Part shown: positions 30,546 through 47,990 of the stretch, piece after piece | Layout: each line of letters starts with the position of its first letter | How positions within the stretch are numbered: position 1 is the first letter of the stretch | DNA from: Romanomermis culicivorax | Lineage: Eukaryota > Nematoda > Enoplea > Mermithida > Mermithidae | Direction: 5' to 3' | NCBI GenBank assembly: GCA_963922205.1 | Contig: CAWUHX010000243.1 | Span: 378,761 to 442,760 of the forward strand | DNA length: 64,000 nucleotides | Translations under genes and position numbers: made by a program | The notes under the pieces: generated by a model | Databases searched by the model: none | What the model saw: only the letters and a program-made list of their open reading frames with translations | What the model was told of the DNA's origin: nothing

Positions 30546-31176
30546 TTCTTTCTCCCTCTGATTCTCGACGATGGTAGTACTTCACCATTGCTTGTGACTG
30601 GATATATTTTTTTCAGCACTTCTATTTCTGGGCAATGCATGACTTATAAGGCACACTTTTTTTAAGGATATAACCTTGCCAATTTTGAGTCACTTGCTAT
30701 GGTTTCGAGAAAAGGGGACCAACATAAACAGGAAAAACAATAGATAATTGGCCTATTTTTTATCTAAAGAAACAGAGTTACCTAGTTACATCAGACATGT
30801 AACAACTTGTACATTTTTGCAGTATCTATGGTCAAGCACATGCTGTTGTATCTAATACTGTAAAATGTTTGCTGAGGAATATTTTTACAGTTTACAACAT
30901 TCATGTAACTTTAAGTGTGAGAAGGTCCACTAGGGATGATGTTTAGTGAAACATTTCTCCATTGGCTGTTAACTGTCCCTAGGCTTTTGAATGTGCAATT
31001 TCAGAATTTACATTGAAAAAATTCAACTCAGTTTCAGCTTCCCTCATTTTGCATGCAAAAAAGCTGCTTACAAAGTATTGACTAAACATGTTAATTTATT
31101 TTGTTTACAAATGACGTTTATATGTGTAAAAAGATAAAAAAGTCTTATTGGATAAATTCAACCAATATTCTGCATG
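30546..31176. other. Non-coding; ends at the Polinton target site
   Basis: AT-rich, no gene seen. The last six bases (31171-31176, tgcatg) are the left copy of the probable target-site duplication. Confidence 0.6.
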
Positions 31177-31303
31177 AGTTGTATAGAGGGGGGGGGGGGG
31201 CTCGAGCGCTCCCCGGCCCATGCAAAAGATAGGCGTTGGACTTATTAAAAAAATCACAACCTCCCCGACACACAAAACATAGCCGGCCTTCCACTGACTA
31301 CTA

Positions 31304-31311
31304 TGACGTCA
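31304..31311. promoter_or_regulatory. CRE/ATF palindrome TGACGTCA (left TIR, outer)
   Basis: A perfect 8-bp CREB/ATF consensus, mirrored at 44452-44459. Whether it is bound is unknown. Confidence 0.6.
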
Positions 31312-31333
31312 TTTTTCCGGCTGGAAAAAAGCA

Positions 31334-31341
31334 TGACGTCA
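31334..31341. promoter_or_regulatory. CRE/ATF palindrome TGACGTCA (left TIR, inner)
   Basis: A second perfect copy 30 bp from the first (start to start), mirrored at 44422-44429. Confidence 0.6.
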
Positions 31342-31834
31342 CACCAGGTGTAGAAAGAAAAAAGTTGCCCGAACTTGGCCCACCCACATCTCCATCAAAA
31401 CTCAAAATAATGTAACATATATGGTACTTTCCGGAATCAGCTCAATGTGATCTATCCATTGGTACCCAACATGATCCATTTAGCACAAAAGCCTAAATTT
31501 AGTGTGGGCTATGTTATTTGTTATTATGCATTGCCACTGCTGCCTGCCACCACCGCCGCCACCGTTGCCACGCCTGTTGGGGGGAGGGAAGTTCGCCTAG
31601 CTAATAAAGCTGAAGCTGGTGCTTCAAGCTTTATATAGCTAGCCTAAATGGAATAAACAATCGATATGAGCAATAAATCATGTGATATATCAACAGAAAT
31701 TGTGTACTCATTCGCACTGATCACAGGATCAGTCCCAGCACCAGCTGCGGGGAGGCTAGTACACATGTGACGCCAAGTATAACCCTTTTATAGGATATAC
31801 CCGCCATACATAGTATGACTCGCAGTGCCCAACT

Positions 31835-32125: not shown

Positions 32126-35100
32126 TCATAAGTCCAATGGCACAGTTGTTACGCCATCATCCAACACCTTCCTTTTTATGTAAAGGAAAGGGAGACCCTG
32201 CTTCTGTTGCATGTATGTCCACATGTTACTGTCTCCCTGCAACCTGAACCCAATATTTTCACCATTCCAGGGTTCCTTGGTCTCCAGAACTGAAGCATAT
32301 TTGTGGAATGTGAGATCATTAATTTTTTCCATTAGACCCTTACAACTTGTCTTTTTCTCTTCCTCCCCTATCCCAATGTACGTTTTGGCGGACAAACAGC
32401 ACATGGCTGTTCCACGCGATTCCACTTTTAGTTATCCTGGGGTTCATTTTTGTTCGGGACTTACCACAAACCAATTTGGGTAGATTCGGCTCAAAAATTC
32501 TTCTTTCAGTTCTGGTTTTACAATATCCAAAAGACTTTCAGCAGATATTGCGAGGTAGATGCTATCAGCATCTAATTCCATACACTGATAGTCCGAAGGG
32601 TCGAAATACTTTTGCAAGACATCGTAAAAAAATTCTAGGATTCGGATTTTCGCCCAATTGTAAACTGAAAGTCCAACAACAATTGGTAGATCCAAAACAA
32701 TTTCCTTTTTCTTCATATGTACTTCGTAGCAATTTTCTGTAATACACTTTATCTTCTTGATGTAGGGACTTAAACCAAGTTCGGCAGCCCTCTCATAATC
32801 AGTGTAGATAACGTCCATATGGCTTTCCTTGTTTGTTAAAGTTTTTCCATATCCCCTATTACGGAGCTATTTAAAAGTATCAGCGATCATCGCCAGCTGG
32901 GGATTGATATCTTCTTCACTTCTGTGCCTTGTAACCTTATCACAAAAGGCTTCAAGTGGGGTAGACTTATCAAATTGAATTACTTCATGGATTTTTTCCA
33001 ATATCAATCCATGCTTGACCAAAAACTGGACCATGGGCGTGGAGAGCATGATGCCTTTTCCAAAATAACTGCTTATAAGATTTTTTCTTGGTTGCCTTAA
33101 CTGATTGGTTTTTTCAGCATAGTCCATCATGAGGTCACCCGCATCATCTTTGCCCACTTCTGCATGTTTTATTATTGGAGGAAAATTGGCATATTTTTCC
33201 TTCAGATGGTTCGGAGTTGAAATATCAACTTTTACAAATCCAAAAATGGAACCATCCAAAATCGATCTTTCCATTTGCTTTTTATCAACATATTTTTGAA
33301 ACTGAAATTTTCGAAAAAAATTTGGACATGATTTGGCTCTGTCTTTAACATAACTCTGGCGCTGGTCATCCCTCTGGCACTCCCAGATAGTGACCAAGTT
33401 ATGGCCTAATGATTTTATAAATGCTTCTTCTTCCAATCTTTTGCTATGCTCTTCATTACTATCCTTCCGTGTATTTGCCTTGCTGAAGGAACAGTTATGG
33501 CAATGCCAGTAGCAGCCGTAAAATTCATAAATGGTATTTGTGGTTGGGCAATACCCATCAACAGGCAAATGCCTCGGGCCTACACACTTTTCTTTGCCAT
33601 TTCCAAGATGTTGAATGAAATGGCCACTTTCCCAACTCATTTTTTCCAACCATTCAACAGACACTTTTTGGAACTGTTTACTTTATGAAAATCATTTCCA
33701 TGGGGCATCCAGTGATCAAAAAATCCCGTAGGTGTGGGCATGGACTGCGCCCAGAGGTAGAGGGCATTAAAATCGAGCCCAATTATTGATTTTACCAATT
33801 TAAGATCATTTTTCCGAATGAATGTCTTGTCTTTAATTGCCAGACGGGTCATCACCATTGCCAGACCACCCCTCATACTGGATTTTAAGGAATAGTATAG
33901 GTTTTTTGATTTTTCGGAAAAGAGGGCAAAGTGGGTGTCTGGAATGCTTTTAAAGAGGTATCTTTCAGTGACCCCTGGCAAAGACATTGCTTCCCTGAAG
34001 ATATCGATTCTAAATTGTTCCCAGTAAAGCTTGGCCATGACTGTGACTGCTTCTAGAAAAGGCACAAGATCCCGAAGATTGTACAAAATTAAAAAATCTT
34101 TCAAGTTTTCCATTCCATTCTCTCTCCAGTACTTTTGGCATAGTTGATAGTCCTCGTCAAAAATTGATTCTTCCCTACAAGAACTGTAAAATGCTTCTGG
34201 GAGTGGCAGTGATTTTTCATAAAGTTTTTCTAAGGCATCCAAATACTCATAGGGAAATTTGGCTTTGCTGAGGGATGCCCCATAAGACTTCTTAAAGGTG
34301 TCTAAACTAAAACCAGGGGCTAAGTATGGGGATATGTCCAAAAATTTAAGATTTTCAGTAGAAGGGCACAAATAGGCACCATTCCTTAAGATAGCTTTTG
34401 GCCAAGGCCCCTCCCCATTCACTCGAACTTGCTGGACAAGTTTTGGAAAAATATTTCTTTTGATGAGGTTAATATCATATTTCCCTGAATTAAAACCGAG
34501 GCAAGTGAGCTGGGAGCAAAACCTCACAAGACAATTTTTGATGGCAATCAGCAATACTTTACAAAAAATTCAAAAACATGGCTTTTGTCCTCAAAGCTGC
34601 CAAAAATTTCTTGGGCTAGACGCTGAAAAAACAAAGATTATCCTTAAATTTATGTCTTTGGCCATCTTGGGTCATACCAATAAGATTATGAGTCTGATAG
34701 ACCAGGGGTTCAGGTAAGCGAAAATCTTTACACAATGCAACAAAGCTTTTTTGGGGCATGACATAAAATTCCACATTAGTGATAGGGAAAAGTGCCCACT
34801 TTGTGTCTGGACGTGTAAATTTTTCTTCAAAATCAATGTTTTTCACAGTTTATGTCAATTTTTGTAAATCTTCAACATTTCTTATCAAAACAGGTTGATC
34901 AAATAAGGTAAAGTTATTATGGCAGGCATACCAATATTTAAGCTCACCTGTCTCTTATTCTTTAGCAGGCAACCAATTGCTCGATCAATTCTGAAGCATT
35001 CTTTTTCGGATTTGTAGACGTCTTCTAGTATACTTTGTAAGTCACCATTGACTGTAATTCATCGGTAATTGTAAGTATGGTCCAGTATATTAGAATTTGA

Positions 35101-35526
35101 CCTGTTGGTTCAAATTAGGCGCCGATAACTTTCGACTACTTCGTGAGTTACTTCTGGATATTCACCTAAATCCACTGGTGATGCTGGATCTTCTGGAATC
35201 ATATCTTGTCCACTTGTGCTAGGTTTTTCATGATCCATTTCCATTGAGCTGTTATCTTCTGGCTTGATCAATAGGCAGCTACCACTCTGACTTGGAGCGA
35301 ATAATTCTCCTTGATTGGTGAAATTTCTTCCACAATATAAGCAATTCAAGTCACCATGTTGTTGTTTCCAATGTTTGGTCAAACCTTTCACTCATGTAAG
35401 TAAAGAGGCACATCGGGGGCATTTGTATCTCCACCCCTTATGAACAATATAAGCATGTTCATACAAGTATCTTAATTCTTTGTAAGCTTTACCACAATCC
35501 ACACATAAAAAATTTTCAGTCTCCAT
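32126..35526 (-). pseudogene. polB: Polinton protein-primed DNA polymerase B (broken)
   Basis: Family-B, protein-primed polymerase that would replicate the element. Read right to left: an N-terminal C2H2/CxxC finger region (35526-~35300, with 'CVDCGK', 'CPRC' and 'CLYCGRNF'); an exonuclease region with 'FNSGKYDIN' (ExoII, ~34495) and 'YNLRDL' (ExoIII, ~34080); palm motif A 'GLDFNALYL' (~33775); an inserted segment resembling a PD-(D/E)XK nuclease ('VDGYC', 'YEFYGCYWH', 'IWEC', ~33560-33380); motif B ending 'GYGKT' (~32845); motif C 'LDADSIYLA' with both Asp (~32565); and the family C-terminus ending at 32126. Breaks: stops at 35392, 35110, 35059, 34849 and 32867; frameshifts near 34950, 34555-34620, 33660 and 32440. 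The ExoI acidic motif is not recognisable. The start is the ATG at 35526, just inside a TATAAAAG box. Confidence 0.92.
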
Positions 35527-35590
35527 TGTAATGAACTGAACTTTCTTTAACTTGATAAAATTCACAAATGAGCTTTCCTCAAATTTTTTT

Positions 35591-35600
35591 TGCTTTTATA
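35591..35600 (-). promoter_or_regulatory. TATAAAAG box upstream of PolB
   Basis: The minus strand reads TATAAAAGCA, ~65-75 nt upstream of the PolB ATG at 35526. It shares the first eight bases with the plus-strand gene boxes but lacks the TTG. Confidence 0.5.
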
Positions 35601-36365: not shown

Positions 36366-36375
36366 ATAAAAGTTT
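36365..36375 (+). promoter_or_regulatory. Weak box (AATAAAAGTTT) before integrase
   Basis: Two mismatches from the 11-mer and only 20 nt upstream of the integrase ATG. TATAAATA begins at 36361. The spacing is shorter than for other genes, so it is a doubtful promoter. Confidence 0.35.
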
Positions 36376-36384
36376 GACAGCAGC

Positions 36385-37449
36385 ATGGTTGGAAAAATGG
36401 ACAAGCTCTTTGAAAGCATATACTTCAATCTAAGTATAGGGTATTGTAGTGTTCAGAACCTATTACGACAGGCAAAATCTAGTAATCCAAGGGTCACTCT
36501 GCATTCTGTTAAAGAATGGCTACAGAAACAGCCAACATATACTGTACACAAGTATGCTAGGCTCCATTACCCCAGGAATAATGTTCTAATTACTGATATT
36601 GATGAGCAGTGGCAAATGGATCTTGCAGACCTCAGTTCACTCACCAGGCATAATGATGAATGCAAATTCCTTTTAAATTGTATAGATGTCCTGTCAAAAT
36701 TCGCATGGTCTGTACCCTTGAAAAATAAAAATACATAATCTACTTTGCATGCCTTTCAAACAATTTTGAAATCTGGCAGAAAGCCACAAAAAATACAGAC
36801 TGATGCTGGTACAGAGTTCACGAGCAAAGCCTTCCAGGCCTTATTAAAAAAACTTGGCATTAGTTTTTTCATAACAGCTAGTGAAACTAAGGCTAGCATT
36901 GTTGAGCCGTTCAATAGAATTTTGAAGGAAAGAATGTGGCGTCATTTTACTCAAAATAATACATACAAGTACCTAAACATTCTACCCCACCTGCTAAGCT
37001 CTTACAACTCGACTAGGCATAGGACCATAGGTGTTGCTCCCATTGATGTTACTGATGAGAATAAAGCTGGAATTGTTGAAAAGCTTTTCAGGAAATGTAA
37101 GTATAGTTTACAATTTAAACTGGTCCCTGGTGACAAGGTACGCATAAGCAAAGTCAAAAAGACTTTTGAGAAGGGTTACACTCCCAATTGGAGTGACGAA
37201 GTTTTTGTGATTCGTGAGCAAAAAGCTAGATATCCTCCTGTATATACGGTAGAAAATCAGCTGGGAGAAGTCATACAGGGTGTATTTTATGAGCCAGAAT
37301 TACAGAAAGTTGATGAGATTACAGATGTCTGCATTATAGAAAAGATTATACAAAAGAGAAAAAGGGCTGGGAAAACTGAATACTTTGTTAAATGGAAGGG
37401 TCACCCAGATAAATTCAATAGTTGGGTGACAGATTTGATAAAACTATAG
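36385..37449 (+). pseudogene. int: Polinton RVE integrase with chromodomain (one stop)
   Basis: DDE-type, retrovirus-like integrase that inserts the element and makes the 6-bp duplication. The frame has an N-terminal helical region, then the catalytic core: first Asp in 'WQMDLADL', second in 'QTDAGTEF', and Glu in 'IVEPFNRILKE'. An SH3-like region follows ('VPGDKVRI'), then a C-terminal chromodomain ('VEKI'-type start, 'YFVKWKGHPDKFNSW'). The chromodomain is usual for Polinton integrases and probably binds modified histones. A single in-frame TAA at 36736-36738 interrupts the core between the first and second Asp; reading resumes in the same frame. All three catalytic residues are otherwise kept. 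About 354 codons, a normal length. Confidence 0.93.
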
Positions 37450-37619
37450 CTACAGTATGAAAATTAAACGATGATTTGCAGGTCTGAAAATTTTTACATG
37501 TGCCTGATATTTCAGCATATAAGCAACTTCAAAATTATTTTAATCATTTGATTAACTAGAACGGAGTCAAAAAAGTTAAAGCTCCTATTGAACTCTGCAC
37601 TCGAAACTTGCCAAGAACC

Positions 37620-37835
37620 ATGTATCCCTTTATGATTGAACTGTGTTATTTTTGTCAAAAGAACAGCTCTGAACGGGAGTGTTTCCATTTGTCTCAGGGC
37701 AGAACATTCTTTACTATTGAAATGTGCCCAAAATGTCTAGAATACAATAAGGCTTTGCAGGAAGCTGGCGCCGCTGTACTAAAGAAACAGCTAGCTGATA
37801 GACAGGCATTCATCTTGAAGCCTACAGTAAACTAG
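37620..37835 (+). CDS. Small two-knuckle zinc protein (Polinton)
   Basis: 71 codons from the ATG at 37620. Cys9/Cys12 and Cys36/Cys39 make two CxxC knuckles around a conserved-looking centre, followed by an Ala/Lys-rich amphipathic helix. This suggests a small zinc-binding, possibly nucleic-acid- or protein-binding factor. It lies between integrase and ATPase, a position where Polintons vary. A motif-like 'AAAAAAGTTA' is at ~37569-37578. No known family recognised. Confidence 0.6.
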   Translation: MYPFMIELCYFCQKNSSERECFHLSQGRTFFTIEMCPKCLEYNKALQEAGAAVLKKQLADRQAFILKPTVN

Positions 37836-37874
37836 TGAAATGTGATTTGCAAGTATTCTGTAACATTTTTTATG

Positions 37875-37885
37875 TATATAAGTTG
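37875..37885 (+). promoter_or_regulatory. TATATAAGTTG box
   Basis: One mismatch from the repeated 11-mer, starting 73 nt before the ATG at 37948. It is followed by a 'ttattcttcagt' stretch that resembles 'ctattcttcagt' after the box at 39051. Confidence 0.6.
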
Positions 37886-37947
37886 TAAGTTCTCCTTATT
37901 CTTCAGTCTTCAAACTTTTCCTTCTACAGTTTAGTCACTTTTTCAAA

Positions 37948-38280
37948 ATGGAAGGTATTTTTTTAAATGTTGCAATGAGTATGGGCACTTTTCTCAAAAG
38001 ACATTATACTCAAAAAGATGTGGCCAGATATGCCTCATATTTTTGGGATCGAACAAATGATGGCTACAAGCGTGAATGGAAGATTTTGGCTAAAGTGGCC
38101 AATGAGCTGGATCATCGTACCCGTAAGAGAAAACTGACTAGGTTTTGGCACTTTGCCTAGGCACTAGAGGGTTTGATAAAAACTTGTAGTGCTGGACCCC
38201 TTCTTTTTGAGATCTGGATGAATTTTACTCCAGAGGCTGTACAAAAATATGATGATGAAGGTATAGATATGGCCTATTAA
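37948..38280 (+). pseudogene. Small conserved-looking Polinton ORF with one TAG
   Basis: 70 codons to a TAG at 38158-38160, then 39 more open codons in the same frame to a TAA at 38278. The second part ('FEIWMNFTPEAVQKYDDEG') is protein-like, so the original product was probably ~110 residues. It is basic and helical in the middle (KRK, RTRKRK) with an acidic end. No known family. Nonsense mutation is the simplest reading; programmed readthrough is not excluded. Confidence 0.55.
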
Positions 38281-38397
38281 TATTGTAATAATTGTGAGTA
38301 AATATTGTAATAAAAAATAAAGACAAAAAAAATTAAAGAGAAAAAAATTTTAAAAAAATCGAAGCACAATTGCTAGTATTTCGAGCATGTTGCATGT
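38281..38397. other. A-rich spacer with polyadenylation-like words
   Basis: Several overlapping AATAAA-like words at ~38308-38325, after the small ORF and before the ATPase promoter box. They could end the upstream transcript. Confidence 0.45.
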
Positions 38398-38408
38398 TAT
38401 AAAAGTTG
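38398..38408 (+). promoter_or_regulatory. TATAAAAGTTG box, ATPase gene
   Basis: An exact copy of the 11-mer, starting 34 nt before the ATG at 38432. Confidence 0.8.
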
Positions 38409-38431
38409 AGAATCTATAGAAGAAAAAAAAC

Positions 38432-39055
38432 ATGGCTATAAAATTTAATCACCTCTTAACATGTACTGTTGCTGGCCCTAAAAAAGCGGGTAAAACAAAT
38501 TTTGTAAAGAATTTAGTACTAAATGTGAAGTATTTGATTGAACCGGTTCCTGAACATATTCACTGGTTCTTTAGTGAGAAGCAGCCAGTCTACAATGACT
38601 TGTCTGGCAGAGTCAACTTCTATCAGGGATTACCTGACATAAACTTGATTAGAGAGCTCAGTCCTGCACCCCAACTTGTTATACTAGATGATCTCTTGCA
38701 GGAAATGGCTAAAAATAAGCACCTGAACATTCTTTTTACTCATGGATGTCATCACATGAATGTGTATGTAATACACATTGTTCAAAATGTTTTCATCGAG
38801 GGTCTGAGAACATCTAGAATAAATGCAGAATACCTCGTTTTGATGAAGAATCCTGGAGATAGGCTCCAAGTAAAAACTTTGGCAAGACAGTTGTTTCCTG
38901 ACAAAGTAAAGTACTTTCTCAAATCTTTCGAGGATGCCTTATTTAAACCATACAGTTATATAATTGTTGATCTTTCTCAAACAACAACTGATAAACTAAG
39001 ACTCAGAGCTGATATTTTCTCAAAATTTTCCTCGATATATGTGCCAAAAGTATAA
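38432..39055 (+). CDS. Packaging ATPase (FtsK/HerA superfamily)
   Basis: An intact 207-residue genome-packaging ATPase of the type shared by Polintons, adenovirus-like elements and other double-jelly-roll viruses. The Walker A is 'GPKKAGKT' at residues 15-22. Walker B is 'LVILDDL' with Asp86-Asp87. Then comes the family block 'THGCHHMNVYV..IVQN' (~103-119), and near residues 139-142 'KNPGD' and 'YSYIIVDL' at ~174-181, all typical of Polinton ATPases. It would drive DNA into capsids. Its own TATA-like box lies upstream, and its stop codon overlaps the box of the next gene. Confidence 0.93.
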   Translation: MAIKFNHLLTCTVAGPKKAGKTNFVKNLVLNVKYLIEPVPEHIHWFFSEKQPVYNDLSGRVNFYQGLPDINLIRELSPAPQLVILDDLLQEMAKNKHLNILFTHGCHHMNVYVIHIVQNVFIEGLRTSRINAEYLVLMKNPGDRLQVKTLARQLFPDKVKYFLKSFEDALFKPYSYIIVDLSQTTTDKLRLRADIFSKFSSIYVPKV

Positions 39056-39061
39056 AAGTTG
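39051..39061 (+). promoter_or_regulatory. TATAAAAGTTG box, overlaps ATPase stop
   Basis: An exact 11-mer starting 36 nt before the ATG at 39087; the TAA of the ATPase lies inside it. A second exact copy lies at 39236-39246 inside the next gene and may be an internal promoter or chance. Confidence 0.8.
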
Positions 39062-39086
39062 TCTATTCTTCAGTTGTAAGGTCAAA

Positions 39087-39431
39087 ATGCCTTGTGATCA
39101 TCTTAGACATAATATTGATCACATCAAGGTACTAGCTAAGGCTAAACCCAAGCAACGTAAAGCCATTGTTAGTACTGCTGATCGTGAACTGATACTTTGT
39201 TTGTGTGAATGTATACTCAACTTTCTGGAAGGCAATATAAAAGTTGACAAAAATACCTTGAATAAATTAAGTTCCCACAAGGGACATTTAGGAGTATTAG
39301 CAGATGAGAAAACAAGTCTCAGCAAAAGGCGAGAAATTCTAGAACAAAAAGGTGGATTTTTGCCTGTATTGTTGGCACCAATTTTTGGAATAGCTGGACA
39401 AGTACTAGCTGATGCAATTATAAAAAGATGA
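39087..39431 (+). CDS. Conserved Polinton protein with C-terminal hydrophobic helix
   Basis: 114 residues, intact. It resembles the small protein found beside capsid genes in many animal Polintons: a basic helical N-terminus, 'DRELILCLCECILNFLEGN' in the middle, 'KTSLSKRREILEQKGGFLP' and a hydrophobic end (residues ~89-111). The start is the ATG at 39087, 26 nt after the TATA-like box. It overlaps the next ORF by four bases (ATGA), which suggests coupled expression. Function unknown; a virion core or membrane-interacting role would be a guess. Confidence 0.75.
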   Translation: MPCDHLRHNIDHIKVLAKAKPKQRKAIVSTADRELILCLCECILNFLEGNIKVDKNTLNKLSSHKGHLGVLADEKTSLSKRREILEQKGGFLPVLLAPIFGIAGQVLADAIIKR

Positions 39432-40096
39432 TGCATACAAATAAAATGATTCTTGTACCGCATGACATTGGTCATAAGGAGGATATAGCAGCTAATGTAA
39501 TGACTGCTTTGGATAAAGAATTGAATGACATTTTAACTAATAAGTCATTGCCCTCTGACAGAAAGATAATCTTATACAATCAAGTGTTGCACAGATATAG
39601 GCAGGCTACGCAGGATCAAACCAGACCTTATGAGTTGACTGTTAGTGAAGCTGTTGCAGAATACCCCATTCCTGATCTGGAAGAAATAACACCAAAGCAA
39701 AAAAAGCCAGACACTGCTGAAAGTACTGTTGATGTGACCCCGAGAAAAGATGCGCTATATGAAAAAACTATGAAAATTGTACCAAAAAAGTGGCATAGTC
39801 AAGCTAAAATGTTATATGATTATGCTAAAGATAATCCACACATGGAGTGGTCAGATAAAGGAGAAATGATTCTGAAAGGCACCAAAAAAAGTGGAACCAA
39901 CATTGTTGATTTGATTTCTGATGTGGCGAGAGTTGGTCCAAGGCGCCAGCAAGCAATAGGGTCAGAATTGTTTGCAAAGAACCTCTTAAAGGAGAATGTG
40001 CCTCGAGATCTTTTTGTAAATATGTCCAGGCTAAATGTTGGAAGTGAAAGTGATGAAACATTTGCTTTTTTGTTGAAGTGGACCCCTAGATGGTAA
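39428..40096 (+). CDS. Conserved Polinton protein, probable minor virion component
   Basis: 222 residues, intact. The N-terminal part has the family-type 'MILVPHD' start and a helical block 'LDKELNDILTNKSLPSDRK' then 'LYNQVLHRY' (~28-57). The centre is charged and low-complexity (~75-105), and the C-terminal region (~150-200, 'RRQQAIGSELFAKNLL') is helical. Similar proteins sit beside the capsid genes in many metazoan Polintons; their job is not established. It overlaps the upstream ORF by ATGA and is followed by a 100-nt spacer with a TATA-like box. Confidence 0.75.
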   Translation: MMHTNKMILVPHDIGHKEDIAANVMTALDKELNDILTNKSLPSDRKIILYNQVLHRYRQATQDQTRPYELTVSEAVAEYPIPDLEEITPKQKKPDTAESTVDVTPRKDALYEKTMKIVPKKWHSQAKMLYDYAKDNPHMEWSDKGEMILKGTKKSGTNIVDLISDVARVGPRRQQAIGSELFAKNLLKENVPRDLFVNMSRLNVGSESDETFAFLLKWTPRW

Positions 40097-40155
40097 AAAA
40101 ATTAATTCACCCAAAAGCATTACACCAAGGTCTAGATGCTTAGAATTTGGAAAAG

Positions 40156-40166
40156 CATAAAAGTTT
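40156..40166 (+). promoter_or_regulatory. Variant box CATAAAAGTTT
   Basis: Two mismatches from the 11-mer, starting 41 nt before the ATG at 40197, so the spacing agrees with the exact copies. Confidence 0.55.
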
Positions 40167-40196
40167 TAATTTACAGCATTTTGTAAATTTATAAAG

Positions 40197-40619
40197 ATGA
40201 GACAATACTTCAATCCAGAAGATTATGCAACTTGGCTTCAGTACTGTACTGAACAAGCTGAAGAAACTGGCTATGGTTTCAAAGGCTTCAAAGGCACTCC
40301 CTATCAACGCGGAGGAGGTCTAGGAAGCTTCTTTAGATCATTATTCAGAATGACCATTCCTGTTAATAAGTCAGCTGCTGGCCATATTGGTAAGCAAGTG
40401 CTATCTACAGGTGCACATATTGCTGGAGATTTAGCTGAAGGTCGATCTATTCAAGAGTCTCTAGAAGAACATGGCCAAGCAGCACTCTCCAAGTTGGCCC
40501 ACAGTGCGGGAGAGGCCTTGCAGACTGGAAGGGGCTTGGGGACTAGACCAAAAGGTATAAAAGTTGAGAAAAATGATATATTCTCAAAGAAAAAGAGAAG
40601 GAAGCATGGCTCTAATTGA
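40197..40619 (+). CDS. Conserved Polinton glycine-rich/basic virion-type protein
   Basis: 140 residues, intact. It has an N-terminal acidic segment, then the family hallmark 'YQRGGGLGSFFRSLFR' (~36-51), an amphipathic Gly/Ala-rich helix ('GKQVLSTGAHIAGDLAEG'), and a very basic end ('KKKRRK', a likely nuclear signal or DNA-binding tail). It lies immediately before the capsid gene and overlaps it by 14 nt. By composition and position it recalls small core or membrane-lytic proteins of adenovirus-type virions, but that is analogy, not homology I can show. Confidence 0.75.
   Translation: MRQYFNPEDYATWLQYCTEQAEETGYGFKGFKGTPYQRGGGLGSFFRSLFRMTIPVNKSAAGHIGKQVLSTGAHIAGDLAEGRSIQESLEEHGQAALSKLAHSAGEALQTGRGLGTRPKGIKVEKNDIFSKKKRRKHGSN
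40556..40566 (+). promoter_or_regulatory. TATAAAAGTTG box, major capsid gene
   Basis: An exact 11-mer inside the end of the preceding gene, starting 50 nt before the capsid ATG at 40606. Confidence 0.8.
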
Positions 40620-41856
40620 TACAATTTCTAGTATTAGTACAAAGTCTGAATTGGACTTTTTCACTGTACCTTCCACACAAGTAGTAATTAAACGAGGCTA
40701 CTGGGATGAAGTTAACCCCATAAATCCTATCAGAAATGATGGTCCATACGAATTTTGTATACCTCCAGATCCTCACATGATTCAGCTTAGCAAAAATTAT
40801 CTGTACATGACCTTGAAAATTACTTTTACTGTTCCTGCTGGTGGAGCTGCACCAGTAATCGCACCTATCAATCTGATTGGTAAAGCATTTTTCCGACAAG
40901 TGAAGCTCTTCCTGAATGGTCGTCTCATTCATGATAGTGGGGATAAGTATGCCTACAGAGCATTCTTTGAAACTGATTTAAATTTTGGTTTTGATGCTAA
41001 AAATAGTCACTTACAGTCTTCTTTGTATACTATGGAAGCTGGTCCTAAAATAGATACTGCTGATTGCCAGGGTTTCAAAGACAGAGTAAAGTACTTTGAA
41101 AATGGTCAAACAGTTGAAATAACAGCTCCTCTTCATATTGATCTTCTAATGCAAGATCGATATTTACTCAGCAATACTGAGCTCAAACTGGAATTGATTC
41201 GCAATAGTAATCCATTTGTATTACAGTGTCCAGCTGGTGATGCAGAAAATGCAAAATTGGAAGTCTCCCAGATGAAACTCTTCATCAGGAAAGTTGAAGT
41301 TCTCGACAGTGTTGGATTGGCTCTGGAGAAAGCAATGTTAAAGACATCAGTCAAGTACCCAATTAGACGAATCCAAATGGTGAATCTTCATATTGCTAGT
41401 ACAACACAATCTACTCCTCTGAATACTCTATTCACTGGTCAGTTGCCACATAGGATGATTATAGCATGTGTCCATGCAGATGCATATCGTGGAGAAATAA
41501 AAAAATCTCGTCAAGCTTTCCCAGCGACTCCACTAAGACTTGATTTTGCCAACAACAAATATATTCGAGCATATGATCAGCTCTTTGAAACTCTAGACAT
41601 GGCTTAAGATAACAAAGGGAATGGCATTAGCAGACTTAATTTTAAAAATTGACAGTGCTACTTTGCCTTTGATTTTACACCTGATGAAGATGATAGTGGA
41701 CATTGGGACTTGATTAGAGATGGTTCCACAAGTATAGAATTGACGTTTGCTGATAGGATACCTGATGCAGGTATAGAAGTTATTGTTTATGCAGAATTTG
41801 ACAATTTGATTATGATCGATAAAAATAGACACGTCTTTAATGACTATACTGCATGA
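40606..41856 (+). pseudogene. Major capsid protein, double jelly-roll (two stops)
   Basis: Homologue of the widely annotated animal 'F54H12.2-like' Polinton capsid protein, which builds the icosahedral shell. The N-terminus has the family start ('ELDFFTVPSTQ', then 'GYWDEVNP'), followed by the first strand set ('FFRQVKLFLNGRLI', 'YRAFFETDLNFG') and the second jelly roll ('MKLFIRKVEV', 'YPIRRIQMVNL', 'LPHRMIIACV'). TAA at 41605-41607 and TGA at 41650-41652 fall in one frame, and the family C-terminus ('FAFDFTPDEDDSGHW', then 'VYAEFDN') continues in that frame to a TGA at 41854-41856, which overlaps the protease ATG by four bases. Original length ~416 codons. The start at ATG 40606 is preferred over the upstream TTG. 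Confidence 0.92.
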
Positions 41857-42347
41857 ATACCTCTGAAATCTACATTTTGATCAATAGAGATCAAGCTCTC
41901 AGGCGAATCTTCAATGGGGTATTTCATATAGACTGTTTACCACCTCTTGACACTGTACCTGCAGCATTGGTTGTAAATCTGGACAAGCAGGATGAACCTG
42001 GTTCACATTGGGTAGCTCTGTTTGTTGATAAAAAACATGTATGTTGTTATTTTGACAGTTACGGCCTGGAACCACCTCAACAGCTTAGGAATTACATCAA
42101 GACTATATCTACTTCTTACAAGTGGAATACCAAATGTGTTCAACAGTACCTGACTGCTACATGTGGTCAGTTATGTGTATACTGTCTCGTGTGGATAGTC
42201 AGAGGTATAAGAATGAGGGTTATTGCTGCTAGTTTGGAACAAAGCTATGCTGATGAATTTGTTACTGGGTTCATCAACAGTCTCTTTGGAACAAACACTC
42301 CCATATATGATGATGCATTTTTATTTGAACAGCTCAAGAGAAAATAA
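41853..42347 (+). CDS. Adenain-like cysteine protease (maturation protease)
   Basis: 164 residues, intact. C5/Ulp-type cysteine protease that cleaves virion proteins in adenovirus-like and Polinton particles. His52 lies in 'GSHWVALF', Asp68 in 'YFDSYG', Gln97 supplies the oxyanion hole, and nucleophile Cys104 lies in 'TATCGQLC', seven residues after Gln97 as in the family. Length is usual for Polinton proteases. It overlaps the capsid gene end (ATGA), and its TAA overlaps a variant TATA-like box for the next gene. All catalytic positions are kept. Confidence 0.93.
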   Translation: MNTSEIYILINRDQALRRIFNGVFHIDCLPPLDTVPAALVVNLDKQDEPGSHWVALFVDKKHVCCYFDSYGLEPPQQLRNYIKTISTSYKWNTKCVQQYLTATCGQLCVYCLVWIVRGIRMRVIAASLEQSYADEFVTGFINSLFGTNTPIYDDAFLFEQLKRK

Positions 42348-42353
42348 AAGTTA
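42343..42353 (+). promoter_or_regulatory. Variant box AATAAAAGTTA
   Basis: Two mismatches from the 11-mer, overlapping the protease stop codon, 41 nt before the ATG at 42384. Confidence 0.5.
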
Positions 42354-42383
42354 GTTTCTACCATATTGACATATTGAAAAAAA

Positions 42384-43167
42384 ATGGATTTTTCACAGTT
42401 TTATGTAACATTACTGAGCAATGCTCAGAGCGATCAGAGTAACTCCGCTTTAAATTTTAGTATCAGATTGCCTCATAGATTGATTTTGCAAGGTGAATGG
42501 GAATGTGCACTTTGTGAATTCATCTACCCAAATATGTGGTTCAATATAACACCTAGTGGTAGTGTAATAAAATTTTAAATGATCTTCAGACCAATACTAG
42601 GCAATTACTGAAAGTACCTTCTACAAGGTATGAATCTATAATAGATTTAATTGAAGTTATTCAACAATCCATCAGGTTGTTGAGTGAACAGGAAAAAGTT
42701 CCAAATAATGTTTATCGAATTTTCATACAGGAGATTAGCCAGAGCAATTGTCCTGAAAGTGAACTTGACTAGAATCAAGGGCATAAAATTAAGTGATCCT
42801 TTACTCTACCTGTTGGGCTTTGAGAAATCACAACTAGAAACAATTTCATCTGAAAAATTGAAAATTGCTGCTGCACACCCTGCTGATATGAAGGCTGGTC
42901 TCGAAACTATGTATGTTTATTGTAACATCATTGAACAACAGATTGCTGGTGATATTTTAGCCCCCCCTCCTCTGTATTGTTAATATAGAGAGAGCTTTTG
43001 GTGTCATTATAGATAAGATATATATAGCTCCTCACTACTTGCCTGTACTCATAAGAGATATCCATTCTATCGAAATTTCAATTAGAACAGATCAAGACAA
43101 ACCTATAAAATTTGTCACTGGTAAAACAATTGTGAAGTTACACTTTAGAAAACGAAGTTTATTCTAA
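42384..43167 (+). pseudogene. Penton/minor-capsid-like protein (several breaks)
   Basis: The first frame (42384-42578) has the family start 'YVTLLSN' and 'LQGEWECALCEFIYP'. A shifted frame continues with 'LKVPSTRYESI' (~42608-42640). A third, from ~42715, has 'FSYRRLARAIVLKVN' and 'LLGFE'. After a one-base shift in the C run at ~42959-42967, the typical C-terminus ('IYIAPHYLPVL', then 'GKTIVKLHFRK') runs to a TAA at 43165. It therefore has at least three frame changes over ~260 codons. The layout fits the Polinton protein taken to be the single-jelly-roll penton; I am less sure of that role than of the family. Confidence 0.8.
43104..43114 (+). promoter_or_regulatory. TATAAAATTTG box upstream of the TBP-like gene
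   Basis: One mismatch from the 11-mer, 48 nt before the presumed original start codon at 43152. It lies inside the preceding coding region, as other boxes in this element do. Confidence 0.5.
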
Positions 43168-43688
43168 AATTGCAAGTACAAAACATTACTGTCACAGCTG
43201 AACTTGGCTGTCTACTCAATTTAGACTCACTTGTTAAAAAACTAGATGGCTCTAAACTTACTATGGGAAAATTCAGGTCACTAATTTGGCACCTTCATGA
43301 TCCTAAATGTTGTCTTCTGTTGTACGAAAATGGCAAGGTTGTATATGCGGGTATTAAGGCAACTCAGCAGGCTGTGAAAAGTATAGATTATGCTACAAAA
43401 ACACTTCTTAAACATGGCTATCAGCCAAGACCCAAGAAATTTAGAATGTGCAATGTTGTTGGGTCATAAGCCCCAGATCACTGAATAAATGTTGAAGAAT
43501 TCTATAACACTCATAGGGGTCAATGTGATTATTATCCTGAATTATTTCCTGCACTCAAATATACAATCAACAAGCAAGGCTTATGTGCATGGATTTTCCA
43601 TAATGGCAAAATTATTATTACAGGTGCCACAACCTATAATGAGCTACAAAAAAAGTTCAAAGAGTTACTTGTCAGTTTTCAAAATTGA
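43152..43688 (+). pseudogene. TATA-binding-protein (TBP) homologue, two stops
   Basis: A two-repeat TBP saddle domain. The first repeat has 'QVQNITVTAELGC' (TBP-type 'QNIV.T..LGC'), 'GKFRSLIWHL', and 'LYENGKVVYAG' (TBP 'IFSSGK.V.TGAK'), ending 'CNVVGS' (TBP 'QN.VGS'). The second has 'YYPELFPALKYTI' and 'WIFHNGKIIITGA', as in TBP repeat 2. Of the four DNA-intercalating Phe, three align (one in repeat 1, two in repeat 2) and the fourth is Tyr. Stops: TAA 43467 and TGA 43482, both in frame, in the inter-repeat linker. No ATG: codon 43152 is ACG where an ATG would fit, and reading is open from there. There is no long N-terminal tail. It would bind TATA-type promoters. Not part of the usual Polinton gene set I know. 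Confidence 0.88.
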
Positions 43689-43731
43689 TGAGTAAGTACT
43701 GGTATGATTCAATTACAGTACTACCCACTGG

Positions 43732-43742
43732 TATAAATATAT
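43732..43742 (+). promoter_or_regulatory. TATAAATATAT box before the terminal small gene
   Basis: A TATA-like box 43 nt before the ATG at 43775. It shares only TATAAA with the 11-mer. Confidence 0.5.
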
Positions 43743-43774
43743 CAAGTCAATAGGTGAAACATTCATTCTCTAAA

Positions 43775-43951
43775 ATGGAGCCTTGCAACTTATGTGGGAA
43801 AACTCCTGTGCATTCTGTGCATTATGCTGTGTGTAAATATGTTCAGGGAGGTAGATACAGAGAATTGGGTGTTGATCCTCCACCAGTGAAAACAAAAAGG
43901 CTGATGAAGAAAGACTGGACTTGGGATCACAACTATAGTGAAAAAAAGTAA
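43775..43951 (+). CDS. Small zinc-finger-like protein (Polinton, last gene)
   Basis: 58 codons, intact. Cys4, Cys7, His13/His16 and Cys20 form a C-x2-C-x5-H-x2-H-x3-C cluster that could bind one zinc. A basic stretch ('KTKRLMKKDW') follows. The start is the ATG at 43775, not the upstream TTG. It lies between the TBP-like gene and the right TIR. No family recognised; possibly a DNA- or protein-binding accessory. Confidence 0.6.
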   Translation: MEPCNLCGKTPVHSVHYAVCKYVQGGRYRELGVDPPPVKTKRLMKKDWTWDHNYSEKK

Positions 43952-44421
43952 ACCAACATTTATTGTGGGTACTTTCTATGAAAGTACTGGCGCCATGTGT
44001 GTACTAGCCTCCCCGCGTCTGGCGCTGGGACTGATCCTGTGATCAGTGAAAATGAGTACACAATTTCTGTTGATATATCACATGATTTATTGCTCATATC
44101 GATTGTTCATTCCATTTAGGCTAGCTATATAAAGCTTGAAGCGGCAGCTTCAGCTTTATTAGCCAGGCGAACTTCCCTCCCCCCAACAGGCGCGGCAACA
44201 GTGGCGGCTGCGGTGGCAGGCAGCAGTGGCAATGCATAATAACAAATAACATAGCCCACACTAAATTTAGGCTTTTGTGCTAAATGGATCATGTTGGGTA
44301 CCAATGGATAGATCACATTGAGCTGATTCCGGAAAGTACCATATATGTTACATTATTTTGAGTTTTGATGGAGATGTGGGTGGGCCAAGTTCGGGCAACT
44401 TTTTTCTTTCTACACCTGGTG

Positions 44422-44429
44422 TGACGTCA
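44422..44429. promoter_or_regulatory. CRE/ATF palindrome TGACGTCA (right TIR, inner)
   Basis: Mirror of 31334-31341. Confidence 0.6.
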
Positions 44430-44451
44430 TGCTTTTTTCCAGCCGGAAAAA

Positions 44452-44459
44452 TGACGTCA
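44452..44459. promoter_or_regulatory. CRE/ATF palindrome TGACGTCA (right TIR, outer)
   Basis: Mirror of 31304-31311. Confidence 0.6.
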
Positions 44460-44605
44460 TAGTAGTCAGTGGAAGGCCGGCTATGTTTTGTGTGTCGGGG
44501 AGGTTGTGATTTTTTGTTAAGTCCAACACCGCCTATCTTTTGCATGGGCCGGGGAGTTTTGGCGCTCGAGCACCCCCCCCCCCTCGCCTCTATATTACTT
44601 ACATG

Positions 44606-45607: not shown

Positions 45608-46935
45608 TTAATGATTAACAGCATTCATTTCAACCACATTAATAGTTATAATTTTGCTGCCTCTTGAAAATAACTTCACCACTTTTTTCCTGTAAGGCTT
45701 TATGACAAAAGCTGTAATGAATGGTGCTGATGCTAAATTCAGGGGTAAAAATAACATTGAAACTCGGCTGAACCATGGATTGACAGCTGTGAAATACTGT
45801 GAAAGCTTTACAAAATTGGCTGGACATTGAACCAAAATTGGCATGACAGTAGAAATGGCTAGTAAAATGATGATTTGTCGTGATTCTTCCACCAGGCCCG
45901 AATCCATCCAGGGACCAACTTGCGAAATATGTATTCTTATTTTCTTTACAATAAGATAGCCGAATGCAACACAGAGCACATTTGAAATCAATAGGAATAT
46001 TTGACTATACAAGGAGCTAAAAGTTGACATTGTGCTGATAGTTTTCACAGCACAAATACCATTATTGTTTAGGCCAAAAGCATCATAATATATTAATGGG
46101 ATGAGAACTGGCATGTTCACAATCAGAACCAAAATAAAGCATGCCAGAATACCATACACGTTGAACCATGCTTTGTATTTTTCCTATAAGAAGATTTAAC
46201 ACTGTGAAATGTGCAAGAATCAAGTGAAAAATTCTAAAGATAAAACATGTCACTTACAAACTTCAGAGTACTAAGGATTATGTTATGTCAATAGACTCTA
46301 GACACTTTAACTGACATTCAGACAACAACATTGAAACAGATTCACAGATAAGAGAACACTGTAATGTGAAACCTTATGAATTGAAAAAACTGAGTATTGA
46401 TTGGTACCATGTGGAAGATTATACCATTTGACTATCAGAATTGTAATTCACAGGCAATTAACATATATGTAAGAATGAAGATCTAAATTAATAAAGTTAA
46501 GGACCTTTTCAATTCATGCACAAGTACGCATACAAATTCGTCTCTAACCTTGTGGTATATTGCAAGATATCGACTAAACATGTTGATAGTTATCCAAACT
46601 TGATTCATGCCCATGAATGATATATGAAAGAATCCAGCTATTTTGCAAGGAACTTCCCCATGGCTAAGGATTACATATGGTTCCAAGCAAGCTGAATTGA
46701 AGCACATGCATAAGTCTGTTAACAATGTTGCAAATATAATTTTTTCGTAGGGCTTGCATTTTTTGAAATCTGAAGAAATTTTGTGCTGTAAATATGCATG
46801 TAAACTGCAACATGGGAAAAACTGCTTACCTTTAAAGATTATGAATATCAAAACAATGTTGCCAATGAGGCCAACTGTACCTGATAGGCTCCAACAGACT
46901 GCTGTCACAATGCTTGAAGTTTGGGTATTATTCAT
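45608..46935 (-). CDS. Rhodopsin-like 7TM receptor, copy D (three exons, intact)
   Basis: Exons: 46935-46830 (106 nt), 46769-46549 (221 nt), 46183-45608 (576 nt). Introns are GT-AG: GTAAGC...TTCAG (60 nt) and GTTAGA...TATAG (365 nt). The joined frame is open for 300 residues. Seven hydrophobic segments are present: TM1 with 'GLIGN' (Asn26, the 1.50 position), TM2 with 'LLTDL' (Asp54, 2.50), Cys77 at the start of TM3, 'MFSRYLAIYHK' (Arg102 in the DRY position) at its end, TM4-TM5 around a Cys-bearing loop ('NGICAV'), TM6 after 'EESRQI', and TM7 with 'APFIT' in place of NPxxY, followed by a basic tail 'KPYRKK'. A rhodopsin-class GPCR of a divergent, locally expanded family; a chemoreceptor role would be inference. 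Ligand unknown. Confidence 0.85.
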
Positions 46936-47140
46936 TTCTAAGGCCTGAATATAATACTAATAAACCATATTCTGTAGTATAAATCCCTGAAAAAGATTCA
47001 CCAAAAATGGAAAAGTGGATTTGGGTCATTACTTCAACAAGCTCATAAATGTGGAAAGCTGATTGCAATGTTCTTCTTTGAAGGTTCACAAATGCAACAA
47101 GCCTGTCACTACAGAATAAATTTTTTTTTGTAGCACTAAT
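46936..47140. other. 5' flank of receptor copy D
   Basis: Presumed promoter region of the receptor. No clear TATA box assigned. Confidence 0.4.
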
Positions 47141-47990
47141 GGGGGTCTATTCCCAATTTGGTAGCACTAATGGGGGTCTATTCCCAAGTGAGGGATTCCC
47201 AAGTGAGTGATTCCCAAGTGAGCAATTCTCAAGTGAGTGATTCCCAGGTGAGTGATTCCCAAGTGAACAAATTCCCAATTGAGTTATTCCTATGCGAGTG
47301 AATTCCCATTTGAGGGATTCTCATGTGAGCGATTCCCAATTGAGGGAATTCCTAAGTGAGGGAATTCCCAAGTGAGTGAATTCCCAAGTGAGAAAATTCC
47401 CAATTGGGTGATTCCAAATGAGCAATTGAGAATGTAATAACAATTTCTTCCTTCTTTATCTAACATTTTTCTTTGAATGTTATTTCTGTTTCTTTTGTTT
47501 TCTGGGTGTATTGTTAATGTTTTTGTTTATGTATGTTTTAATGTTTTCATCTTTTGTCTCTGCTTTCTTTCCTTTTCTTTTTTTGTCATCTACTTTTTTC
47601 TTTTTTGCTCATGAAACAACATGCTACAAGTTGTTATTCTAAATAACTTTAGTATCCTATATAATTCTAGTACAGTTTCTAGTAACATACATAAAAAAAT
47701 TCTAGTAACATACATGAACAAAAACATAGATAAACAAAAACAAAAACATACACACAAATAACAAAGGAAAAAATACATAAAAAGAAACATATAGGGTAAA
47801 TAAGGAGAACATAAAGAAAGTTTTATTTTGGAATCACCCATTTGGGAATTTGCTCACTTGGGAATCGTCCACTTGGGAATCACTCAATTGAGAATTGCTC
47901 ATTTGAGAATCACTCACTTGAGAATCACTCGCTTGGGAATCACTCAGATTGGAATACCAGCTAATGGGTAATACCAGCTAATGGGTACCT
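47141..47990. mobile_element. Foldback element with tandem-repeat arms
   Basis: The left arm (47146-47428) is a tandem array of 'gtgagtgattcccaa'-type units. The right arm (~47834-47955) is the reverse complement of the same array ('ttgggaatcactcac'). Beyond the arrays each end carries a short doubled word: 'gtagcactaatgggggtcta' on the left, 'taccagctaatgggta' on the right. The ~400-bp loop is CT-rich then A-rich with no recognisable gene. This matches the architecture of foldback DNA elements. Confidence 0.75.

What the first reader, a model, noticed from the sequence alone, without database searches (positions are those of the whole stretch)
43152..43688. A TATA-binding-protein homologue encoded inside a Polinton
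Seen: both TBP repeats are recognisable, with the inter-repeat 'VGS', the 'PELFPALKY' and 'GKIIITGA' blocks, and three of the four intercalating Phe conserved (the fourth is Tyr). The gene lies between the penton-like gene and the right TIR on the coding strand of the element, so it is cargo and not host flank. Known: TBP homologues occur in some large nucleocytoplasmic DNA viruses; I do not know TBP as part of the canonical Polinton set. Inference: a captured or ancestral transcription factor for the element's own genes. Two linker stops and a lost start show this copy is decayed.
Basis: partly seen in the sequence, partly recalled or inferred. Interest (0 to 1): 0.93.

Follow-up and report, generated by a model that had tools for sequence, protein, structure and literature searches.

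The report
Polintons carrying their own TATA-binding protein
Large virus-like mobile elements in what looks like an animal genome carry their own version of the TATA-binding protein, a basic factor that starts transcription in eukaryotes; the copy read here is broken, but many other copies in the same genome have an open gene that shows marks of selection.

Summary
Window 43152-43688 (+) holds both TBP repeats (Pfam TBP 1.6e-14 and 2.7e-13) in a decayed Polinton, 31177-44599. The host genome has 172 listed TBP loci of this kind, fragments included; 61 of 120 near-full first-repeat matches are uninterrupted in frames of 165 aa or more. In 30 of 30 fetched close copies TBP follows the penton gene. 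A Polinton from a deep-sea bin, L014, has an intact TBP. Open close copies evolve at dN/dS about 0.16. Polinton TBPs form one group (84/83), sister to eukaryotic TBP; the host's own TBP is a separate multi-exon gene. DNA- and TFIIB-contact residues are largely kept, part of the TFIIA surface lost; gene starts carry TATA boxes above chance. Best explanation: a captured eukaryotic TBP, kept to start transcription from the element's own TATA promoters on host Pol II. Identity and linkage are shown; function is inferred. Some giant viruses and mirusviruses encode TBP; I found no report of one in Polintons, but the founding paper could not be read.

The parts
31171..31176 (.). left target-site duplication TGCATG (right: TACATG at 44600-44605; 5 of 6 equal)
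   Evidence: sequence; 6-bp TSD and AGT/ACT ends are what PMC8097293 says of vertebrate Mavericks (passages)
31177..31775 (+). left terminal inverted repeat, starts AGT
   Evidence: 528-nt core 31248-31775 is 97% complementary to 43988-44515; outer end by comparison with other copies
32444..34849 (-). family B DNA polymerase, broken into several frames
   Evidence: DNA_pol_B_2 8.6e-08 in 33640-34569; the other frames gave no polymerase match and are assigned by position
35110..35595 (-). zinc-finger-like ORFs on the polymerase strand
   Evidence: weak C2H2 matches, below the cut-off
36385..37449 (+). retroviral-type integrase with C-terminal chromodomain, one in-frame stop at 36736-36738
   Evidence: rve 6.3e-06 and Chromo 5.7e-09; both pieces match the L014 integrase, 6.7e-23 and 9.6e-33
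38432..39055 (+). packaging ATPase
   Evidence: Pox_A32 0.0031; L014 ATPase pieces match at 1.1e-22 and 1.7e-22
39087..40096 (+). two ORFs of unknown function (39087-39431, 39446-40096) shared with L014 (3831-4169, 4170-4973)
   Evidence: 3.0e-31 and 1.0e-15
40197..40619 (+). small protein before the capsid gene, counterpart of L014 7204-7650
   Evidence: 37% over 119 aa, 3.9e-25
40606..41856 (+). double jelly-roll major capsid protein, in-frame stops at 41605-41607 and 41650-41652
   Evidence: 181 relatives, best 70% identical, P0001 with PF21738; stops; L014 capsid 36% over 350 aa, 8.8e-81
41853..42347 (+). adenain-type cysteine protease
   Evidence: Peptidase_C5 0.0017; L014 protease matches at 4.8e-28
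42384..43167 (+). penton (minor capsid) gene, broken into several frames
   Evidence: three pieces match the L014 penton at 3.5e-10, 2.7e-8 and 4.1e-14; frames; the name penton is recalled from Polinton anatomy
43170..43688 (+). TBP gene: first repeat to 43466, in-frame stops 43467-43469 and 43482-43484, second repeat 43485-43685; start codon lost
43732..43743 (+). TATA box (TATAAATATATC) 43 nt upstream of the small ORF, recurring in other copies
43775..43951 (+). small Cys-containing ORF after TBP, unknown function, present after TBP in 30 of 30 close copies
43988..44599 (-). right terminal inverted repeat, ends ACT

Best explanation
It is a decayed copy of a genuine Polinton gene. A eukaryotic TBP, without introns and cut down to the bare two-repeat core of about 170 residues, became part of these Polintons, probably once and early. 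It has diversified into several subfamilies and been kept under purifying selection at least in the close one. Most likely mechanism (inferred): the protein binds the TATA boxes in front of the element's own genes, bends them as TBP does, recruits host TFIIB and RNA polymerase II, and so lets the element start its transcription without depending on host TFIID and partly outside the controls that act on cellular TBP through TFIIA. Shown: identity, element linkage, many open copies, selection on open close copies, common grouping (moderate support), retained DNA-contact and TFIIB-contact residues, changed TFIIA-surface residues, TATA boxes at gene starts. Not shown: DNA binding, TFIIB binding, expression, effect on transcription.
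For: TBP identity. Element gene: penton then TBP in 30 of 30 close copies, protease too in 29 of 30, TIR downstream in 24 of 30; protease-penton-TBP also in 8 of 9 fetched loci of other subfamilies with this layout (L051-L057 and L062; L058 lacks the protease). 172 TBP loci listed over three own-genome searches, each capped at 150 scored. 84 of 98 listed capsid loci at least 80% identical to the window's have a listed TBP within 5 kb, 93 of all 121 scored ones. Diverged Polinton L014 with an intact TBP of 172 aa; its capsid protein is 36% identical to the window's. Seven further relatives of that TBP in the protein database. Selection: 190 pairs of subfamily A, median dS 0.217, dN 0.036, dN/dS 0.163. 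One group 84/83 beside eukaryotic TBP, joint branch 92/83. Residues over 35 Polinton-type rows: N159, F207, K211, T215 in 35, N69 and E188 in 34, F190 in 33, F99 and L189 in 32; K138 in 2 and Y139 in none (which residue touches what is recalled). TATAWA 20-80 nt before gene starts: window 8 of 12 against a shuffle mean of 1.16, L014 5 of 16 against 0.20, neither reached in 2000 shuffles. TATA before the small ORF recurs in A, B and C copies. Precedent: the giant virus CpV-BQ1 encodes TBP and TFIIB, which its authors think redirect the polymerase to viral genes (PMC12085832, passage).
Against: No structure model (tool off) and no expression or binding data. The Polinton group is not at the starred support level (84/83; the own-genome rows alone 69/61), and one E-type row is among the five long branches. 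TATAAAW is not enriched over the whole element (17 against 17.3 expected), and I knew the window's TATA positions when I listed its gene starts. Host TBP would also use such TATA boxes, so they do not prove that the element's TBP does. T124 is replaced in 32 of 35 rows, Q158 in 35 and E186 in 27, so DNA or TFIIB binding may be altered; K145, which I also recall as a TFIIA contact, is kept in 21 of 35. D-type pairs give dN/dS 0.26, 0.85 and 1.01. Open frames were chosen for analysis, which lowers dN/dS. 28 of 121 capsid loci have no listed TBP within 5 kb, and 79 of 172 TBP loci no listed capsid within 5 kb; both lists are capped.
Confidence: 0.68

Rival explanations
1. The element's TBP acts on the host instead of the element: it occupies host TATA promoters or sequesters TFIIB and, lacking part of the TFIIA surface, blocks or redirects host transcription.
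For: DNA-contact residues largely kept and K138/Y139 lost, which is also what a dominant-negative TBP might look like.
Against: TFIIB-contact residues E188 and L189 are kept (34 and 32 of 35), which a blocker would not need. TATA boxes sit before the element's own genes.
Confidence: 0.15
2. The protein steers integration: as a DNA- or TFIIIB/TFIID-linked tether it guides the integrase to promoter-like sites.
For: Integrase and TBP are in the same element; some retroelements use the TBP-containing TFIIIB for targeting (recalled).
Against: The integrase already carries a chromodomain, a more usual tether (recalled). TBP lies beside the penton or, in L014, the ATPase gene, not beside integrase. 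Insertion sites were not analysed.
Confidence: 0.05
3. Architectural or virion DNA-binding role: TBP bends or packs the element's DNA.
For: In A-D copies it follows the capsid, protease and penton genes.
Against: In L014 it lies on the other strand next to the ATPase gene, and in E-type copies in another place again. Keeping TFIIB-contact residues is not explained.
Confidence: 0.05
4. A recent retrocopy of host TBP, or unrelated host flank, caught beside the element.
For: None beyond TBP being a host gene.
Against: Host TBP is a separate multi-exon gene. The other own-genome matches are 25-37% identical to human TBP, group together, and recur at the same place in 30 of 30 fetched close copies and in another Polinton.
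Confidence: 0.01

Closest known systems
Polinton/Maverick elements
   Same: PolB, integrase with chromodomain, ATPase, adenain-type protease, capsid and penton genes, TIRs, AGT/ACT ends, 6-bp target-site duplication (ends as in PMC8097293, passages)
   Different: Carries a TBP gene. 'TATA' and 'TBP' occur 0 times in the main texts of PMC8097293, PMC4028283, PMC3671162, PMC11071308 and PMC10120064 (word counts). Kapitonov and Jurka 2006 could not be read.
Eukaryotic TBP (TFIID core subunit)
   Same: Two repeats, intercalating aromatics, central Asn pair, stirrup E188/L189
   Different: About 30% identical to yeast and human TBP in the window copy, no introns, no N-terminal region in the complete copies; K138, Y139, T124 and Q158 mostly or always changed
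TBPs of algal giant viruses (YSLPV1-3, CpV-BQ1)
   Same: Eukaryotic DNA viruses that encode TBP, with TFIIB (PMC4602308 and PMC12085832, passages)
   Different: Genomes of well over 100 kb with their own TFIIB; no TFIIB match was seen in the Polinton frames tried against Pfam, a weak TFIIB zinc-ribbon hit (0.086) apart. Relationship of their TBP to the Polinton TBP not tested
Mirusvirus TBP
   Same: TBP among mirusvirus core gene clusters, 59% of genomes against 0% of Nucleocytoviricota in that comparison (PMC10132985, passages)
   Different: Large viruses with a different capsid fold (recalled); relationship of their TBP to the Polinton TBP not tested
TBP-like factor (TLF/TRF2)
   Same: A diverged eukaryotic TBP paralogue
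   Different: The one TLF row (human, recalled sequence) has V, W and H at F99, F116 and F190 and groups with cellular TBP, not with the Polinton rows
CHeCME elements of Cymbomonas
   Same: Mobile elements with sporadic TBP genes (PMC10675990, passages)
   Different: Said there to lack DNA polymerase, packaging ATPase and double jelly-roll capsid genes; thought mirusvirus-related
Haloarcula virus HJTV-2 and IMG/VR contig TBPs
   Same: Virus-encoded or IMG/VR-contig TBP
   Different: 8 of 9 IMG/VR rows (HJTV-2 among them as L012) group with the M. jannaschii TBP (95/88); the ninth, L003, is a long branch on the eukaryotic side

Membership tests
[quoted passage not shown]
   DNA_pol_B_2 8.6e-08 above its cut-off, frame broken; protein priming itself not tested
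Polinton/Maverick | retroviral-type integrase | tested here: met
   rve 6.3e-06 (26.8 bits, below Pfam's cut-off of 32.6) plus Chromo 5.7e-09
Polinton/Maverick | A32-like ATPase and adenain protease | tested here: met
   Pox_A32 0.0031 and Peptidase_C5 0.0017, both under Pfam's cut-off; L014 counterparts match at 1e-22 and 4.8e-28
Polinton/Maverick | double jelly-roll capsid protein and penton | tested here: met
   MCP relatives up to 70% identity incl. PF21738 proteins; no Pfam hit of the window MCP or penton pieces themselves; penton pieces match L014's
Polinton/Maverick | TIRs, AGT/ACT ends and 6-bp target-site duplication | tested here: met
   TSD 5 of 6 equal
TBP family (PF00352) | two TBP repeats above the curated cut-off | tested here: met
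   53.9 and 50 bits against 22.9; three E-type copies 1.3e-32 to 2.4e-44
TBP family (PF00352) | intercalating Phe and central Asn pairs | tested here: met
   one Phe is Tyr in 22 of 35 rows
TBP family (PF00352) | saddle fold | not testable with these tools
   structure prediction switched off
TBP family (PF00352) | binding of TATA DNA and TFIIB | not testable with these tools
   needs protein
TBP family (PF00352) | TFIIA-contact residues K138, Y139, K145 (recalled) | tested here: inconclusive
   K138 in 2, Y139 in 0, K145 in 21 of 35 rows; not required for family membership: the archaeal row differs at Y139 and K145 too
TLF/TRF2 | grouping with TLF | tested here: not met
   TLF groups with cellular TBP at 94/85 (one TLF row, recalled sequence)
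Mirusvirus or giant-virus TBP | grouping with those TBPs | not tested
   no TBP known to be of either kind was fetched

The most novel reading that the evidence does not exclude
A virus-borne, further kind of eukaryotic TBP, neither TBP nor TLF, has travelled with Polintons since before the split of the lineages seen here. It runs a private TATA/TFIIB initiation pathway on host RNA polymerase II that bypasses TFIIA and TFIID control.
Probability: 0.35. Interest if true: 0.92.

Novelty: new variant of a known kind. Interest (0 to 1): 0.84.

Why it matters
TBP is used at nearly every eukaryotic promoter, and the five Polinton papers whose main texts I could search by word do not hold 'TBP' or 'TATA'. 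An element-encoded TBP in 172 listed loci of one genome, and in a Polinton from elsewhere, suggests that some of these small elements bring part of the basal transcription machinery with them, as some giant viruses do. It makes testable whether elements held to be ancestral to many eukaryotic DNA viruses can start Pol II transcription on their own terms. It also gives a natural set of TBPs with the DNA saddle residues kept and part of the TFIIA surface changed.

Tried and rejected
Searches with the window pieces alone found nothing in the protein database (first repeat), in IMG/VR for first repeat, second repeat, capsid and polymerase, or in phage records beyond a weak Haloarcula virus TBP. 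Capsid profile in IMG/VR: nothing. IMG/VR TBPs, 12 loci: 2 of 12, L002 and L010, were looked at gene by gene by eye and show no Polinton genes; the other 10 were not. Of 392 genomes of L014's phylum only L014's own has the Polinton TBP, plus one weak hit in G299 not followed up, so I take L014 for a stray eukaryotic contig in that bin. A seeming TBP-less control family (8 capsid loci at 45-46%) is no control: the one looked at, L072, shows no protease or penton match either. Chance, host retrocopy and host flank are rejected. TATA enrichment over the whole element is rejected; only the positions before gene starts stand out. The own-genome search by Pfam family did not complete, so protein queries carried that question. 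I first took the capsid break for a frame change; one search shows two in-frame stops.

Rows dropped before counts: tree used 35 of 36 prepared rows (IMGVR_L010 too short); L008, L009 (taken for near-duplicates of L007 and L003) and protein P0128 were not prepared; 12 of 37 own-genome frames were used. dN/dS used 33 of 37 frames (at least 165 codons), 28 distinct after leaving out L062. In one search the pattern was widened from TATAAAW to TATAWA, and one L014 start was entered 3 bases off. Literature listings were cut (18 of 19; 30 of 381; 15 of 985; 12 of 752).

Full report
The observation. The + strand frame at 43152-43688 translates into two TBP repeats separated by a linker with two in-frame stops. 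Searched apart, the first repeat matches Pfam TBP at 1.6e-14 and the second at 2.7e-13, 53.9 and 50 bits against a cut-off of 22.9. In the PDB by sequence both match TBPs of archaea, yeast, plants and man. The pieces align with the two halves of yeast TBP at 30% and 36% identity, and the linker between VGS and PELF has the length of yeast's (23 codons each, counted by eye). The copy is dead: stops at 43467-43469 and 43482-43484 and no ATG at the codon (43170) where complete copies begin.

The element. An inverted repeat of 528 nt, 97% complementary, encloses 12.2 kb. Comparison with other copies puts the ends at 31177 (AGT) and 44599 (ACT), flanked by TGCATG and TACATG, 5 of 6 equal. This is as described for vertebrate Mavericks (PMC8097293, passages seen). 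Inside lie polymerase B, integrase with chromodomain, ATPase, protease, capsid and penton genes. Polymerase, integrase, capsid and penton are broken in the window copy. The TBP gene begins directly after the penton gene. Then come a small ORF with Cys residues and the right repeat.

Copies in the same genome. The window lies in a 359-Mb, 595-contig genome. It is probably an animal's (inference), because its own TBP is 81% and 78% identical to human over two exons and is spread over at least three. Searching it with the first repeat gave 150 scored matches from 213 candidates, which are 147 distinct loci, fragments included. Human TBP as query added 22 and the L014 TBP three more, 172 listed in all, a lower bound. 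Of 120 matches spanning nearly the whole first repeat, 84 have no stop inside the match and 61 of these lie in open frames of at least 165 aa. In the fetched loci 37 frames of at least 120 aa run from ATG to stop, 32 distinct proteins; 33 of the 37 have at least 165 codons.

Context. Of 30 close copies fetched with up to 1.5 kb of flank (window included), 30 have penton before TBP, 30 have the small ORF after it, 29 have protease before penton, and 24 show the terminal repeat. Nine fetched loci of more distant subfamilies have the same layout: eight (L051-L057, L062) show protease-penton-TBP and L058 penton-TBP. A fourth type (L059, L060, L061, L063) has TBP elsewhere: L059, L061 and L063 share with L014 a gene that I take, from recalled motifs, for the N-terminal part of the polymerase (Pfam gave no polymerase match for the pieces tried), and L060 and L061 have a penton-like match downstream. 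A capsid query gave 121 scored loci from 1466 candidates. Of the 98 at 80% identity or more, 84 have a listed TBP within 5 kb; of the 13 at 60-79%, 8; of two at 50-59%, 1; of eight below 50%, none; 93 of 121 in all. In turn 93 of the 172 TBP loci have a listed capsid within 5 kb. L072, standing for those eight, has capsid pieces but no protease, penton or TBP match in the 5 kb downstream.

A second source. The capsid protein has 181 relatives in the protein database, best 70% identical. A profile of 28 of the 120 listed ones hit one contig in GTDB genomes: L014, 11.6 kb, in a bin labelled Planctomycetota, 'Dive96' (that this is deep-sea is my reading of the name). It is a Polinton: ATPase, integrase, penton, capsid and protease match the window's at 1e-22, 1e-32, 4e-14, 9e-81 and 5e-28. 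It has an intact 172-aa TBP gene matched by the two window pieces at 3.4e-13 and 1e-11. In the protein database this TBP has seven further relatives, 50-70% identical; six are 167-172 aa and one is 234 aa. Their contigs could not be read, so that they are Polinton genes is inference.

Descent. In a maximum-likelihood tree of 35 rows the own-genome Polinton TBPs and the metagenomic ones form one side of a branch (84/83), sister to human, yeast, host TBP and TLF (joint branch 92/83). The host TBP sits with human and yeast (92/94). Eight of nine IMG/VR rows sit with the M. jannaschii TBP (95/88); the ninth, L003, is a long branch on the eukaryotic side (86/93). This fits one early capture of a eukaryotic TBP, but the support is below the level that the program stars, five rows have long branches, and no TBP known to be from a giant virus or mirusvirus was included.

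Selection. Among 20 distinct open frames of the close subfamily, 190 pairs give median dS 0.217, dN 0.036 and dN/dS 0.163; the pooled raw ratio is 0.202. The B pair gives 0.277, the three D pairs 0.26, 0.85 and 1.01; comparisons between subfamilies are saturated (median dS about 2 or not computable). Frames were chosen for being open, which biases the ratio down, but not to this degree in my judgement.

How it may work. By position (contacts recalled from the literature), the 35 Polinton-type rows keep most of what touches DNA: N69 in 34, N159 in 35, F99 in 32, F190 in 33, F207 in 35, aromatic at F116 in 35 (22 Tyr), K211 and T215 in 35. They keep the TFIIB stirrup residues E188 (34) and L189 (32). 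They mostly lose E186 (8 keep it), T124 (3), Q158 (0), and of the TFIIA surface K138 (2) and Y139 (0), while K145 stays in 21. The host row has the yeast residue at all positions compared. TATA boxes stand before the element's genes: in the window 8 of 12 gene starts have TATAWA 20-80 nt upstream (shuffle mean 1.16), in L014 5 of 16 (mean 0.20), neither reached in 2000 shuffles. The box 43 nt before the small ORF, TATAAATATATC, recurs in all 30 close copies with small changes (one reads TATAGA) and in diverged form in the two B and one C copies. Over the whole element TATAAAW sites are no denser than in the flanks (17 against 17.3). I infer an initiation factor for the element's own promoters that uses host TFIIB and polymerase II and is at least partly freed from TFIIA.

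What is known. Full-text searches for Polinton or Maverick with TATA-binding protein, TATA-box, TBP, TFIID and related words, and adintovirus with transcription factor, gave no paper whose listing or passages, as far as I saw them, report a Polinton TBP (listings, several of them cut). I saw passages or word counts of PMC10675990, PMC10132985, PMC11071308, PMC10120064, PMC4028283, PMC3671162, PMC8097293, PMC4602308 and PMC12085832 and read no paper whole. The founding Polinton paper and one that I asked for as the adintovirus paper are not held. I dimly recall protein names such as PTRF or PTF1 for unassigned Polinton proteins; searches for these with Polinton gave no paper. An earlier mention there or in Repbase cannot be excluded. 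Virus-encoded TBP as such is known: the algal giant viruses YSLPV1-3 and CpV-BQ1 encode TBP and TFIIB, and for CpV-BQ1 the authors propose that such factors redirect the polymerase to viral genes. Mirusviruses carry TBP in 59% of genomes against 0% of Nucleocytoviricota in one comparison of gene clusters, which does not sit easily with the giant-virus cases and shows that such figures depend on the clusters used.

Verdict. The element is a Polinton and the gene is a TBP. The combination, its copy number and its conservation are the new part as far as I could search. The function is inferred.

Noticed in passing
43775-43951 and the same place in 30 of 30 close copies (L019-L048): A small Cys-containing ORF of unknown function follows TBP and has a well-conserved TATA box.
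   Followed up: partly
G000 C3, C5, C6, C94, C150 (example L072): Eight loci with capsid matches of the same length and 45-46% identity; in L072 capsid pieces plus the small protein before them stand without protease, penton or TBP match downstream: perhaps a capsid block carried by another repeat.
   Followed up: partly
L051, L054, L055 (D-type TBPs): Two of three D-type pairs have dN/dS near 1 (0.85 and 1.01), unlike the close subfamily.
   Followed up: no
P0128: A 234-aa relative of the L014 TBP with a Lys-rich insert of about 60 residues in the first repeat.
   Followed up: no
47180-47290 and 47830-47958: Arrays of a short repeat (ATTCCCAAGTGAG-like) in opposite orientations beside the element.
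   Followed up: no
45608-46956, 50797-51444, 53190-53585, 61657-62088, 11611-12225: Similar receptor-like host frames on both sides of the element, judged by eye as a GPCR-type cluster; no family search was made.
   Followed up: no
51684-52268: Long ATT microsatellite.
   Followed up: no
IMG/VR L002, L004, L005, L007, L011, L013: A group of TBPs on IMG/VR contigs on the M. jannaschii side of the tree; L002's neighbours do not look like Polinton genes by eye.
   Followed up: partly
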